NCBI RefSeq assembly: GCF_024494595.1
Contig: NZ_JANHDI010000012.1
Location: 1 to 64,000 of the forward strand
Length of the DNA stretch: 64,000 nt
Source: Halobellus rarus
GTDB taxonomy: Archaea > Halobacteriota > Halobacteria > Halobacteriales > Haloferacaceae
Direction: 5' to 3'
Below, in pieces: positions 6,741 to 8,928 of the stretch. A program made the position numbers and the translations under genes. The notes under the pieces are model-generated. The model saw nothing but the letters and a program-made list of their open reading frames with translations. It was not told the DNA's origin and did no database searches. The first letter of the stretch is position 1. Every line of letters begins with the position of its first letter.

Positions 6741-6815
6741 TGGGCGCTGCAGGATTTGAACCCGCGACAACTTGGTCCGAAGCCAAGCACTCTGTCCAAA
6801 CTGAGCTAAGCGCCC
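6741..6815 (-). tRNA. tRNA-Arg (anticodon TCG)
   Basis: The reverse complement folds as a cloverleaf: acceptor GGGCGCT pairs with AGCGCCC, the anticodon stem CTTGG/CCAAG closes the loop CTTCGGA (anticodon TCG), and the T arm is GCGGG-TTCAAAT-CCTGC. The discriminator is A and CCA is not encoded. No intron is seen. Its 3' end faces the element on the left, the usual orientation for integration into a tRNA gene by a tyrosine recombinase. Confidence 0.95.
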
Positions 6816-6837
6816 TCACTGTGGGATACCGGCGTGG

Positions 6838-6850
6838 GTTAATTTAAACC
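6838..6850 (-). promoter_or_regulatory. TATA box of tRNA-Arg
   Basis: On the minus strand GGTTTAAATTAAC lies about 28 bases before the first base of the tRNA, the normal archaeal TATA distance. Confidence 0.6.
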
Positions 6851-6937
6851 CACGGATTCGGTCTCGAACCTCTACTGGGTGTTGCTTCGATGAGACCTGC
6901 CCATCTAACTGATGGCACGGACGCGGTCGGTGACTTC

Positions 6938-6972
6938 CTATCGATTTTCATACTGTTCGACCTTGTTCAGGT
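6938..6972 (-). repeat. Degenerate copy 1 of the chorismate mutase 3' end
   Basis: 6938-6969 matches the last 32 bases of the chorismate mutase gene (8626-8657) at 26 positions without gaps. Read on the minus strand it encodes LNKVEQYENR followed by TAG, against LNKVEQRESR and TAG in the gene. Similarity ends abruptly upstream of the Leu codon. Together with copy 2 it brackets the MazEF-like module. It looks like an attachment-site duplication or a relic of insertion at the gene end. Confidence 0.65.
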
Positions 6973-7064
6973 AACTGAAATCCAGTATACGGCCGAAATT
7001 ACACTCACACAGTGTCGATAGTAGTTCTCTTATCTCACCTCTGCATCCGGCCGAAAGGGATTTG

Positions 7065-7084
7065 GATATGAATAAGATATGAAT
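7065..7084 (+). promoter_or_regulatory. Direct repeats before the antitoxin gene
   Basis: GATATGAAT occurs twice (7065-7073 and 7076-7084), 11 bases apart, ending just before the ATG at 7089. AbrB/MazE antitoxins commonly autorepress from sites at their own promoter, so this is a candidate operator. Confidence 0.4.
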
Positions 7085-7088
7085 ATGT

Positions 7089-7355
7089 ATGACTGGGGGT
7101 CAAGAGCGGAAAGTCGGCGAACGGGGGCAGGTCACCCTCCCGAAAGAACTGCGAGAAGAACTGAATATCCACGGTGGTGACGTAGTACTTGTTCACGAAG
7201 AAGACGGGAAAATTACCATCGAAAAACCCGTAGGTCGAGAGGAACTCGCCGAAGGGTACCGGCGACGCGCGGCAGAGGCCAAAGCGCTCTCAGCGGAGAT
7301 GGGTGGCGTGTCTCGCGAAGCAGACGAGCACCTCGGCGATGCCCCTGAGTGGTAG
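7089..7355 (+). CDS. AbrB/MazE-type antitoxin
   Basis: An 88-residue protein with the swapped-hairpin AbrB fold signature at its N-terminus: GERGQVTLPKELREEL followed by GGDVVLVHEEDGKITIEKP (roughly residues 11-50). The C-terminal ~35 residues are charged and Trp-terminated, as expected for the part that wraps a MazF toxin. It lies 3 bases upstream of the toxin gene, the normal antitoxin-first order. It should neutralise the toxin by direct binding and repress its own operon, probably through the direct repeats at 7065-7084. The module sits between two degraded copies of the chorismate mutase 3' end. Confidence 0.88.
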   Translation: MTGGQERKVGERGQVTLPKELREELNIHGGDVVLVHEEDGKITIEKPVGREELAEGYRRRAAEAKALSAEMGGVSREADEHLGDAPEW

Positions 7356-7358
7356 CTG

Positions 7359-7712
7359 ATGGACGTTCGCCGCGGTGACATCGTTATCGTAGAACTTGAC
7401 CCAACAGAAGGCTCCGAACAGCGAGGAACCCGACCGTGTCTGGTCGTCCAGAACGACGTCGGGAATGAGAACGCCCCCACAACTATCGTCGTTCCGTTCA
7501 CGACGTCCCGAGGAGACAAACCGTACCCGTTCGAGGTACTCGTCACGGCTGCGGAGTCTCCGCTTAGAGAGGATTCGGTTGCCCTCTGTAGTCAGATTCG
7601 CACGGTTTCAATCGAGCATCGGATTAAGGACAATATCGGCACCGTCGCGGATGCCCGTCTGGCAGAAGTTGATGCAGCGCTCGAATACAGTCTCGGTCTA
7701 AAGGAACTTTAG
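7359..7712 (+). CDS. MazF/PemK-type toxin (endoribonuclease)
   Basis: A 117-residue protein of normal MazF length. It shows the family's N-terminal RRGDIVIVELDPTEGSEQRG with the usual GSEQ-x-G-x-R-P loop (GTRPCLVVQND), then TTIVVPFTTS and the C-terminal strand with SVALCSQIRTVSIEHR. MazF toxins cut single-stranded RNA at short motifs and halt growth; the specificity here is unknown. The gene follows its antitoxin by 3 bases. The stop codon overlaps the edge of repeat copy 2, so the module ends exactly at the repeat. Confidence 0.88.
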   Translation: MDVRRGDIVIVELDPTEGSEQRGTRPCLVVQNDVGNENAPTTIVVPFTTSRGDKPYPFEVLVTAAESPLREDSVALCSQIRTVSIEHRIKDNIGTVADARLAEVDAALEYSLGLKEL

Positions 7713-7742
7713 CGAGACTCTCGTTGCTCAACTTGTTCAGGT
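7709..7742 (-). repeat. Degenerate copy 2 of the chorismate mutase 3' end
   Basis: 7709-7739 aligns with 8626-8657 at about 25 of 32 columns with one single-base gap. It shares the extended core CTTGTTCAGGT with copy 1. The one-base loss shifts the frame, so it reads LNKLSNES instead of LNKVEQRES. It lies between the MazEF-like and RHH-RelE-like modules. Confidence 0.55.
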
Positions 7743-7795
7743 CACAAACTGATGTTATAGATTCTGCGTATCTTGCCGCTATCTGACGAGAACAG

Positions 7796-8077
7796 TCAAT
7801 CGTCGTCGGCGGTGTAGGCACCACCGGGACGTTTGATTCGAGCGACTATCACCCGCTGTTCGTTCCGTCGGAACGTCACGGACAACCGGAACTCGCCGAC
7901 ACGCACCTTCTTGTGCGGACTGTTCTGTAGCGGTTCGCCGTAATCCGGTGGGTCTCGCCACGGTGAATCGACGATTTCGTCGAGTTTGTCCAGAATCCGG
8001 TCTTGTTCGTCTTGAGCGAGCGCAGCGAGGTCGTCCTGCGCCTTCGATCCGAGTTCCCACGTCCCAGTCGTCGTCAC
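7796..8077 (-). CDS. RelE/ParE-family toxin
   Basis: A 93-residue protein with the RelE/ParE layout: an N-terminal helix pair (KAQDDLAALAQDEQDRILDKLDEI), a Pro-rich link, then strands KKVRVGEFRLSVTFRRNEQRVIVARIKRPGG (given here in two parts: KKVRVGEFRLSVTF and RRNEQRVIVARIKRPGG). The strand pair with RVGEFRLSV and VARIKRPGG is the typical active core. RelE toxins cut mRNA on the ribosome and ParE toxins poison gyrase; which applies here is not decided. It starts with GTG overlapping the antitoxin stop by 4 bases. Confidence 0.83.
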   Translation of the reverse strand: MTTTGTWELGSKAQDDLAALAQDEQDRILDKLDEIVDSPWRDPPDYGEPLQNSPHKKVRVGEFRLSVTFRRNEQRVIVARIKRPGGAYTADDD

Positions 8078-8358
8078 TCATCGCCGTCCGTGCCGAATCG
8101 CTCGCGGGCGTCGTCCGCACTCATAGTTCGTCCCTCGCGGATGTCTTCCTCCGCTTTGAGGAGCGCCACGAGTTCGTCGCGGTCGAACGTCGGGAACTCG
8201 GTCGAGTCCCGAAGCGTGTATCGAATGAACTCGCTCCGACTGTTGAAACCGCGTCCCTGCCACGTGTCGTCTATCTCGTCAAGGAACGACTGCGTAACTT
8301 TGAAATTCACCGTGACGATTTCGTCGTCCCCGTCGTTTCCCGTGACCGCTTCAGACAT
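8074..8358 (-). CDS. Ribbon-helix-helix (CopG-type) antitoxin
   Basis: A 94-residue protein with a ribbon-helix-helix start: the beta strand IVTVNFKVTQSFLDEID, then GFNSRSEFIRYTLRD (helix-turn-helix of the RHH dimer, about residues 12-52). An acidic C-terminal half (ELVALLKAEEDIREGRTMS) would bind the toxin. It lies upstream of and overlaps the RelE-like gene by 4 bases, the normal antitoxin-toxin order. It should autorepress the promoter in 8359-8420. Confidence 0.83.
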   Translation of the reverse strand: MSEAVTGNDGDDEIVTVNFKVTQSFLDEIDDTWQGRGFNSRSEFIRYTLRDSTEFPTFDRDELVALLKAEEDIREGRTMSADDARERFGTDGDE

Positions 8359-8625
8359 ACGTGCGTGTTACTATCGTATTATCAAATCAGTTTCGCCGGG
8401 GTGGGGAGAACTCCTTACGAGGGGCAGCGAATGAGAGACGGATCTGCGAGTTAAGTGTGATTCCCGGATACGGGCTCGTCTGGAAACGTAGGTGCGATCA
8501 CACCCGCAGGAAAATCGGCTGGGTTCACAGGTCGGAACGAGCCGATGTTCAAAAGTAACGATTACGAGATTCACCCACTGGGAACGGTTAACGGAAGACT
8601 GGGGCAGTAGAATAGGTGCGGTATG

Positions 8626-8657
8626 CTATCGAGATTCACGCTGCTCCACCTTGTTCA
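8626..8657 (-). repeat. Intact reference copy (copy 3) of the aroQ 3' end repeat
   Basis: This is the functional 3' end of the chorismate mutase gene including its TAG stop. The two degenerate copies at 6938-6969 and 7709-7739 are in the same orientation. A weaker ten-base match (CGAGATTCAC) lies at 8565-8574. Confidence 0.6.
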
Positions 8658-8928
8658 ACTCGATAAGGAGTCGAAACACGGCTTTCACGAGGTTCGAGTC
8701 CACGTCGAACTGTTCGGCGTTTCGCCCCGCGCGCTCCATCACGCGATCTTCTTGTCCCTCGTCGGTCGTCGGCAGATCTTTTTCGGCTTTCACCTGTGCG
8801 ACCGAGTCGGCGACGTAGGTCCGTCGTGCGATCAGTTCGACGATCTCTCGATCGATATCTTCGATCTCCTCGCGTAGTTCGTCCAGCGACGGGTCTTCTT
8901 CGGATGCGGTGTATTCGTTTCGAGTCAT
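8626..8928 (-). CDS. aroQ: Chorismate mutase (AroQ type)
   Basis: A 100-residue all-helical protein matching short AroQ chorismate mutases. LDELREEIEDIDREIVELIARR is the first long helix with the active-site Arg (seen as DIDREIVELIARR). VAQVKAEKDLP follows with the second-helix Lys, then the ER/VMERAG turn and a last helix ending ELNKVEQRESR. It converts chorismate to prephenate for Phe/Tyr synthesis. The ATG at 8928 overlaps the shikimate kinase stop (TCAT at 8925-8928), so the two shikimate-pathway genes are co-translated. Its last 32 bases occur in degraded form at 6938 and 7709. Confidence 0.92.
   Translation of the reverse strand: MTRNEYTASEEDPSLDELREEIEDIDREIVELIARRTYVADSVAQVKAEKDLPTTDEGQEDRVMERAGRNAEQFDVDSNLVKAVFRLLIELNKVEQRESR

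What the first reader, a model, noticed from the sequence alone, without database searches (positions are those of the whole stretch)
6938..8657. Two toxin-antitoxin modules, each bounded by degraded copies of the chorismate mutase 3' end
The last 32 bases of aroQ (8626-8657) recur at 6938-6969 (26/32 identical, no gap) and 7709-7739 (about 25/32, one gap), all in the same orientation. Copy 1 even encodes LNKVEQ....R plus the same TAG stop. Similarity ends abruptly. The MazEF-like module lies between copies 1 and 2, the RHH-RelE-like module between copies 2 and 3. This looks like serial insertion at the 3' end of a protein-coding gene with target-site duplication, next to a tRNA gene that is itself an integration site. 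No integrase is present in the islet.
Basis: partly seen in the sequence, partly recalled or inferred. Interest (0 to 1): 0.7.

Follow-up and report, generated by a model that had tools for sequence, protein, structure and literature searches.

The report
Toxin–antitoxin cassette array behind aroQ
In salt-loving archaea, small gene cassettes, mostly toxin–antitoxin pairs, insert one behind another at the end of the chorismate mutase gene, each bringing a fresh copy of the gene's last bases; the recombinase that probably moves them sits at the same spot in a few relatives, so this looks like a widespread cassette-capture site in archaea for which I found no published description.

Summary
Observation confirmed; interpretation largely right and extended. 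Both copies of the aroQ 3' end are real. On the cassette side each is preceded by a conserved motif that is not aroQ sequence: class 1 (..ATGGATTTCAGCTACC) at copy 1, class 2 (GAATCTGTAACATCAGTC..GACC) at copy 2. Among 87 haloarchaeal aroQ loci, 48 carry extra copies downstream (60 same-strand hits against 1 reverse and 1 upstream). They delimit cassettes of median 1.06 kb, tandem up to three (four on a plasmid); 45 of 63 contain a toxin gene (MazF, PIN types, RelE). Five Halobellus genomes are empty: one aroQ end beside tRNA-Arg. Homologous cassettes sit at different array positions in different genera, with DNA similarity starting and stopping at the repeats; the window's MazEF cassette matches one in Halorubrum this way. 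A tyrosine integrase subfamily was found in four genomes, downstream of aroQ in all four; three lie in 32–38-kb elements whose far end has the class-1 motif and whose aroQ tail is the same foreign sequence. Best reading: site-specific recombination at TGAACAA, cassettes mobilised in trans. It works like CIMEs and dif modules but fails their full definitions. Not shown: recombination activity, trans mobilisation, the class-2 recombinase.

The parts
8626..8928 (-). aroQ, chorismate mutase type II; its 3' end is the attachment site (attB-like)
   Evidence: PF01817; conserved in 167/170 family genomes
8626..8657 (-). aroQ 3' tail = proximal att copy (copy 3); inferred crossover in TGAACAA (8651-8657)
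7740..8625 (.). Cassette 1 (RHH-RelE), about 0.9 kb, proximal, hence inferred to be the most recent insertion
   Evidence: homologous to Haloferax marinum and denitrificans cassettes L096/L099 at 82-84%
8074..8358 (-). RHH antitoxin-like, 94 aa
   Evidence: weak matches to the NikR N-terminal ribbon-helix-helix; 4-bp overlap with the toxin gene
7796..8077 (-). RelE/ParE-like toxin, 93 aa
   Evidence: PF05016 E 3e-4, just under the cut-off; PDB 2khe toxin-like protein E 0.003
7740..7764 (-). class-2 att arm (GAATCTATAACATCAGTTTGTGACC) at the distal end of cassette 1
   Evidence: score 27.1 versus shuffle maximum 18.3
7709..7739 (-). displaced aroQ 3'-end copy 2 (1-base deletion); the mazF stop codon overlaps it
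6970..7708 (.). Cassette 2 (MazEF), about 0.77 kb
   Evidence: 79% identical to the position-1 cassette of Halorubrum salinum L059, ends -4/+1 bp from the att boundaries
7089..7355 (+). MazE/AbrB-type antitoxin, 88 aa
   Evidence: PF04014 1e-14; TIGR01439
7359..7712 (+). MazF/PemK-type toxin, 117 aa
   Evidence: PF02452 1e-33; 28 MazF-like PDB sequences
6970..6994 (-). class-1 att arm (GGCCGTATACTGGATTTCAGTTACC) at the distal end of cassette 2
6938..6969 (-). displaced aroQ 3'-end copy 1; encodes LNKVEQYENR*
   Evidence: 26/32; profile score 48.7
6816..6937 (.). 122-bp flank between tRNA-Arg and copy 1, comparable with the tRNA-aroQ spacing in empty genomes (64-254 bp)
6741..6815 (-). tRNA-Arg (TCG), the conserved neighbour of aroQ in Halobellus

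Best explanation
The islet is a two-cassette array built by serial site-specific integration at the 3' end of aroQ. Each cassette is a small circle-forming unit: a TA pair plus a composite attachment site, made of a cassette-specific arm (class 1 or 2), a 7-bp overlap TGAACAA and its own version of the aroQ tail. A tyrosine recombinase exchanges strands at TGAACAA. The newcomer's tail completes aroQ and the old tail is pushed downstream behind the newcomer's arm. The cassettes lack an integrase; the most likely source is the aroQ-specific integrase of 32-38-kb elements that use the same site and the same class-1 arm, acting in trans when both share a cell. Shown by sequence: att anatomy, empty sites, cassette boundaries and position switching, integrase association, tail replacement by the large elements. 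Inferred: circular intermediate, exact crossover, trans mobilisation, and that the same enzyme serves class-2 arms.
For: 60 same-strand copies downstream of aroQ against 1 reverse and 1 upstream; 48/87 loci occupied. A conserved non-aroQ arm precedes displaced copies. The arm+core pattern occurs in 49/170 genomes, mostly just downstream of aroQ, against 6 control hits. Five same-genus empty sites. 56 cross-locus pairs of homologous cassettes at different array positions; in pairs such as Halorubrum L067/L084 (92%, 1269 bp) and L062/L063 the similarity runs att to att within 0-2 bp. Integrase subfamily (PF00589) in four genomes, downstream of aroQ in all four. Elements of 38.0, 37.6 and 32.5 kb end at class-1 sites. 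Their aroQ tail is the same foreign CAAAGA(C/G)ATAATAGG(A/G)AAA in three genera. In close aroQ pairs identity falls from 0.90-0.95 to 0.76 just after TGAACAAGGT. The aroQ att shows dyad symmetry, 5.9/10 against 2.6 background.
Against: No circular form or recombination was observed. The integrase is rare (3 of 391 sampled class genomes plus G068) although cassettes are common, and the window's genome has only a distant Xer-like homolog (E 1e-19). No integrase was linked to class-2 arms. In G342 the integrase is 10.6 kb from aroQ and no distal att was found. Part of the tail drop may be relaxed constraint, since empty pairs also show 0.80. Some transfers moved aroK-aroQ too (L114; Halobacterium DL1 plasmid), so homologous recombination contributes.
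Confidence: 0.77

Rival explanations
1. Each cassette is a decayed large element (a CIME): an integrase-bearing island entered, then deleted down to a TA pair between intact att sites. Tandem accretion follows, with no mobility of the small units themselves.
For: Ca. Halobonum tyrrellensis (L128) has a broken integrase of the same subfamily beside a VapBC-like pair inside a 3.7-kb att-bounded interval. CIME accretion is described in bacteria (PMC5704250).
Against: The same compact units recur att to att in different genera and array slots with no integrase remnant. Independent decay to the same minimal unit is unlikely; decay followed by spread as a unit amounts to the main model.
Confidence: 0.15
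2. Cassettes spread by homologous recombination between species, anchored in aroK-aroQ and in the repeats, without a site-specific recombinase.
For: Haloparvum L114 holds a second complete aroK-aroQ inside the array. Plasmids carry aroK-aroQ with TA arrays. A Halobacterium plasmid and Halorubrum G120 share aroKQ plus cargo at 96-99.95%.
Against: It does not explain the conserved arm, the one-orientation rule, similarity ending inside the att, the foreign tail in integrase elements, or an integrase subfamily found only there. A 32-bp repeat at 75-80% identity is a poor substrate.
Confidence: 0.1
3. The host's own chromosomal Xer recombinase moves the cassettes, as XerCD moves dif modules.
For: Distant Xer-like homologs are in nearly every genome, which would explain mobility without a resident element integrase. 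dif modules also carry TA pairs (PMC6449649).
Against: The site is confined to aroQ. Sites are all direct, not inverted as in dif modules. A dedicated integrase subfamily sits at this site.
Confidence: 0.1
4. Copies 1 and 2 are chance similarities or remnants of duplicated full aroQ genes.
For: Copy 2 alone is weak (23/32); aroK-aroQ duplications do occur (L114; Halorubrum salinum).
Against: Similarity stops at TGAACAA and is replaced by a shared non-aroQ arm in dozens of genomes; 60 same-strand versus 1 reverse and 1 upstream.
Confidence: 0.01

Closest known systems
CIMEs and tandem accretion of ICE/IME/CIME in bacteria (PMC5704250)
   Same: att-bounded units without integrase, stacked at a gene's 3' end, sharing the site with integrase-bearing elements.
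   Different: CIMEs are defined as decayed ICE/IMEs; here the units are mostly about 1 kb, often one TA pair, and recur as units in many genera and in different array slots. Archaeal host.
dif (pdif) modules of Acinetobacter plasmids (PMC6449649)
   Same: Short recombination sites around small cargo modules without a recombinase; TA pairs are among the cargo; modules shuffle between contexts.
   Different: dif modules use 28-bp XerC/XerD sites in inverted orientation on plasmids; here all sites are direct, contain a coding-gene tail and lie at one gene.
Integron gene cassettes, including archaeal integrons (PMC9668308)
   Same: One capture point, tandem small cassettes, mostly one function each, insertion next to the capture point.
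   Different: No IntI and no integrase beside the array in most genomes; the site is a double-strand core inside a housekeeping gene. A text search of the archaeal-integron paper found no mention of haloarchaea or Halobacteria.
Archaeal integrases with attB inside protein-coding genes (reviewed in PMC8371274)
   Same: Tyrosine integrase with a coding gene as target, e.g. BJ1 virus in an HMG-CoA reductase gene.
   Different: Those are single elements; an aroQ site, a class-wide cassette array and TA cargo are not described in the section read.

Membership tests
Tyrosine-integrase island at a gene 3' end | target gene's 3' end kept complete by the element, displaced fragment at the far end | tested here: met
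Tyrosine-integrase island at a gene 3' end | integrase gene inside the element | tested here: met
   met for the 32-38-kb elements; not met for the small cassettes or the window
CIME | attL/attR kept, no integration or transfer genes | tested here: met
CIME | origin by decay of an ICE or IME | tested here: inconclusive
   integrase remnant only in L128; the other units look primary
CIME | cis-mobilisation with an accreted element | not testable with these tools
   needs an experiment
dif module | sites are inverted relative to each other | tested here: not met
   all array copies on one strand
dif module | XerC/XerD 11-6-11 dif-like core | tested here: not met
   the core is aroQ coding sequence with TGAACAA at the centre
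Integron | IntI-type integrase next to the array | tested here: not met
   no integrase within 10 kb of aroQ except one subfamily in 4 species; best NCBIfam match XerA, 38 bits against a cut-off of 220
Integron | attC that folds as a single-strand hairpin | not tested
   not computed
MazEF type II TA | AbrB-fold antitoxin gene followed by a MazF/PemK toxin gene | tested here: met
RelBE/ParDE type II TA | RHH antitoxin gene overlapping a RelE/ParE-fold toxin gene | tested here: inconclusive
   below curated cut-offs

The most novel reading that the evidence does not exclude
A class-wide archaeal gene-cassette capture system: the aroQ 3' end acts as a universal capture point, small cassettes of mostly TA modules circulate among haloarchaeal genera on chromosomes and plasmids, and a rarely resident integrase of larger, defence-carrying elements moves them in trans.
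Probability: 0.5. Interest if true: 0.88.

Novelty: new variant of a known kind. Interest (0 to 1): 0.76.

Why it matters
Integron-like cassette capture is best known from bacteria. This would be a counterpart in haloarchaea, built on a tyrosine integrase and a housekeeping gene's last bases. It gives a concrete mechanism for how TA modules without their own mobility genes spread across genera, predicts which sequences are cassettes (arm + core + tail) and supplies a candidate recombinase that can be tested in Haloferax volcanii. It also bears on the question, raised in the archaeal recombinase review (PMC8371274), whether coding-gene attB sites have dyad symmetry.

Tried and rejected
Chance and full-gene duplication: rejected. 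Viral carriers: no viral contig in IMG/VR matches the att pattern or encodes the integrase; no phage record shares the site. The integrase is absent from plasmids at E 1e-60. The structure model of the 179-aa PIN-like cargo protein was too poor to use (pLDDT 55), so no fold search was made; a PDB profile search gave only noise. A second tRNA-Arg 3' end in the window, to test the tRNA as an integration site: none. Subscription papers and preprints are not held.

Full report
WHAT IS THERE. The window is the start of a contig of a Halobellus-genus haloarchaeon (family of 170 held genomes; same-genus records are named Halobellus). Downstream of aroQ (8626-8928, minus strand) lie an RHH-RelE-like pair and a MazEF pair, then tRNA-Arg. 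The 26/32 direct repeat at 6938-6969 is real. The 7709-7740 copy has a 1-base deletion and is weak by itself (23/32 ungapped).

CHANCE. I collected 87 distinct aroQ loci (80 from named genomes before removing duplicates, the rest from the genus) and scanned 10 kb on both sides for 32-mers resembling any aroQ end. At 23/32 or better there were 60 same-strand downstream hits, 1 reverse-strand hit, and 1 hit upstream. At 24/32 or better, 48 of 87 loci hold at least one extra copy, 62 in all. Cassette lengths have a median of 1058 bp (10-90%: 681-1927); 36 loci have one extra copy, 9 two, 3 three with the window counted for both of its copies. A Haloterrigena alkaliphila plasmid has four TA cassettes in a row behind its own aroQ.

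THE ATTACHMENT SITE. Aligning displaced copies with 25 bp on each side shows that aroQ similarity is confined to TGAACAAGG...TAG. Upstream of the core, where aroQ reads ..CTGCTCATCGAG, the displaced copies share a different sequence, consensus G(A)AT.TAT.ATGGATTTCAGCTACC. A minority share a second arm, GAATCTGTAACATCAGTC.GAGACC. Window copy 1 has the first, copy 2 the second (27.1 against a shuffle maximum of 18.3). A pattern of the class-1 arm and core, up to 3 mismatches, hits 49 of 170 genomes; nearly all hits with at most one mismatch on aroQ-bearing contigs are on the aroQ strand within about 6 kb downstream, one is 38 kb away. The aroQ site has imperfect dyad symmetry around TGAACAA (5.9 of 10 arm positions, background 2.6).

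EMPTY AND OCCUPIED SITES. In five Halobellus genomes (L019, L020, L028, L055, L056) a single aroQ end lies 64, 115, 124, 187 or 254 bp from the same tRNA-Arg. In the window, copy 1 lies 122 bp from it. Other Halobellus genomes hold other cargo there: VapBC-like pairs (L025 two cassettes, L053 one), a Na/Ca exchanger (L022), a 478-aa protein (L074).

CARGO. 45 of 63 cassettes contain a toxin homolog: MazF 19, a 179-aa PIN-like family 8 (matches PADLOC candidate PDC-S70; PIN assignment by motif only), other PIN types 16, RelE 2. Others carry an SBF-type transporter, alpha/beta hydrolase, methyltransferases, HTH_10 regulators or a glutamine amidotransferase. TA genes lie in either orientation.

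MOVING AS UNITS. 56 pairs of homologous cassettes sit at different array positions in different loci. Several align att to att: L067_c1/L084_c2 1269 bp, 92%, ends -1/0; L062_c1/L063_c3 92%, ends 0/+1; Halogranum L069_c3/Haloferax L089_c1 86%, ends +1/-42; Halorubrum salinum L059_c1/window cassette 2, 812 bp, 79%, ends -4/+1. Over all 56 pairs the longest aligned piece starts within 35 bp of an att boundary in 25 and ends within 35 bp in 24, so exact boundaries are frequent but not universal. Window cassette 1 has homologs in Haloferax (L096, L099), also bounded by aroQ-end copies. A 4-kb stretch 99.95% identical between a Halobacterium plasmid and Halorubrum G120 ends 23 bp inside the distal att.

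THE RECOMBINASE. The hit 38 kb away led to an integrative element in Halorubrum californiense (G109). A 379-aa tyrosine integrase (PF00589; invariant R, HxxRH and Tyr) lies 1.2 kb behind aroQ. Homologs with 48% identity or more were found in three more genomes, and in every case aroQ is next to it: 0.7 kb (G068), 1.9 kb (G383), 10.6 kb (G342). The next-best homologs (up to 41%) are elsewhere as far as checked. Scanning up to 10 kb behind aroQ in about 109 held regions with an integrase profile found only this subfamily, plus a broken copy in Ca. Halobonum tyrrellensis. Three elements (37.95, 37.6 and 32.5 kb) end at a class-1 site. Their aroQ genes share a foreign tail, CAAAGA(C/G)ATAATAGG(A/G)AAA.., in three genera, which shows tail replacement by the incoming element. 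For ordinary aroQ pairs, identity falls from 0.90-0.95 to 0.76 directly after the core; this agrees but is weaker evidence, since a free C-terminus would also diverge.

MECHANISM. Site-specific recombination between an attP (arm + TGAACAA + own aroQ tail) and the aroQ end. Each event keeps aroQ readable and displaces the old tail. Insertion at the gene end puts the youngest cassette next to aroQ, so in the window RHH-RelE would be younger than MazEF (inference). The shared class-1 arm ties TA cassettes to the integrase elements; action in trans is inferred. The window genome itself has no close homolog (best E 1e-19), so its array is probably inactive now.

COMPARISON. It works like CIME accretion, dif modules and integron cassettes. 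It is not an integron (no IntI) and not a dif module (direct sites, no dif core). It meets the descriptive part of CIME but origin by decay is unproven. Eight literature searches found no account of it in the open-access library.

Noticed in passing
L114:13429-14606 (Haloparvum sedimenti): A second complete shikimate kinase + chorismate mutase pair inside the cassette array, itself followed by a MazEF cassette. Halorubrum salinum also has two aroQ loci with the same cassette (L057/L059).
   Followed up: partly
L133 (NZ_CP084320), L134, L135, L136: Haloarchaeal plasmids carry aroK-aroQ with cassette arrays behind them; possible vehicles for the cassettes.
   Followed up: partly
L135 / L169: Nearly identical (99.95% over 3972 bp) cargo behind aroQ in a Halobacterium sp. 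DL1 plasmid and a Halorubrum genome: recent transfer between families.
   Followed up: partly
L167:6281-17932 and L168:9060-10808: The 38-kb Halorubrum californiense element carries HmaA/HmaB-like helicase and methylase genes, a UvrD-type helicase and a GmrSD-type restriction protein: a defence island.
   Followed up: partly
L167:3050-3574: A 174-aa ORF directly upstream of and overlapping the integrase gene; a similar ORF lies next to the integrase in G068 and G383. A possible accessory recombination factor.
   Followed up: no
window:1-6740: Virus-like genes (DUF7845/phrog_3288, phrog_7550, phrog_2095 homologs) on the 3' side of tRNA-Arg, cut by the contig start; a relative of one is next to tRNA-Arg in Halobellus captivus (L029).
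   Followed up: partly
L081:11062-11973, L071 cassette 1: TnpB-like (OrfB_IS605/Cas12f-like) genes inserted inside cassettes, enlarging them to 2-3 kb.
   Followed up: no
first 12 bp after the aroQ stop in many loci: Recurring CCGAATTCGGGC-like sequence directly after the stop codon, perhaps a second arm or a terminator.
   Followed up: no
L063, L068, L069, L115, L116, L130, L134: The two arm classes occur in related and sometimes the same arrays; whether two recombinases are involved is open.
   Followed up: no
L022, ORF about 2.0-2.8 kb downstream of aroQ: A possible integrase-like gene (judged by eye) beside tRNA-Arg in Halobellus G009, hinting that the tRNA may be a separate integration site.
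   Followed up: no
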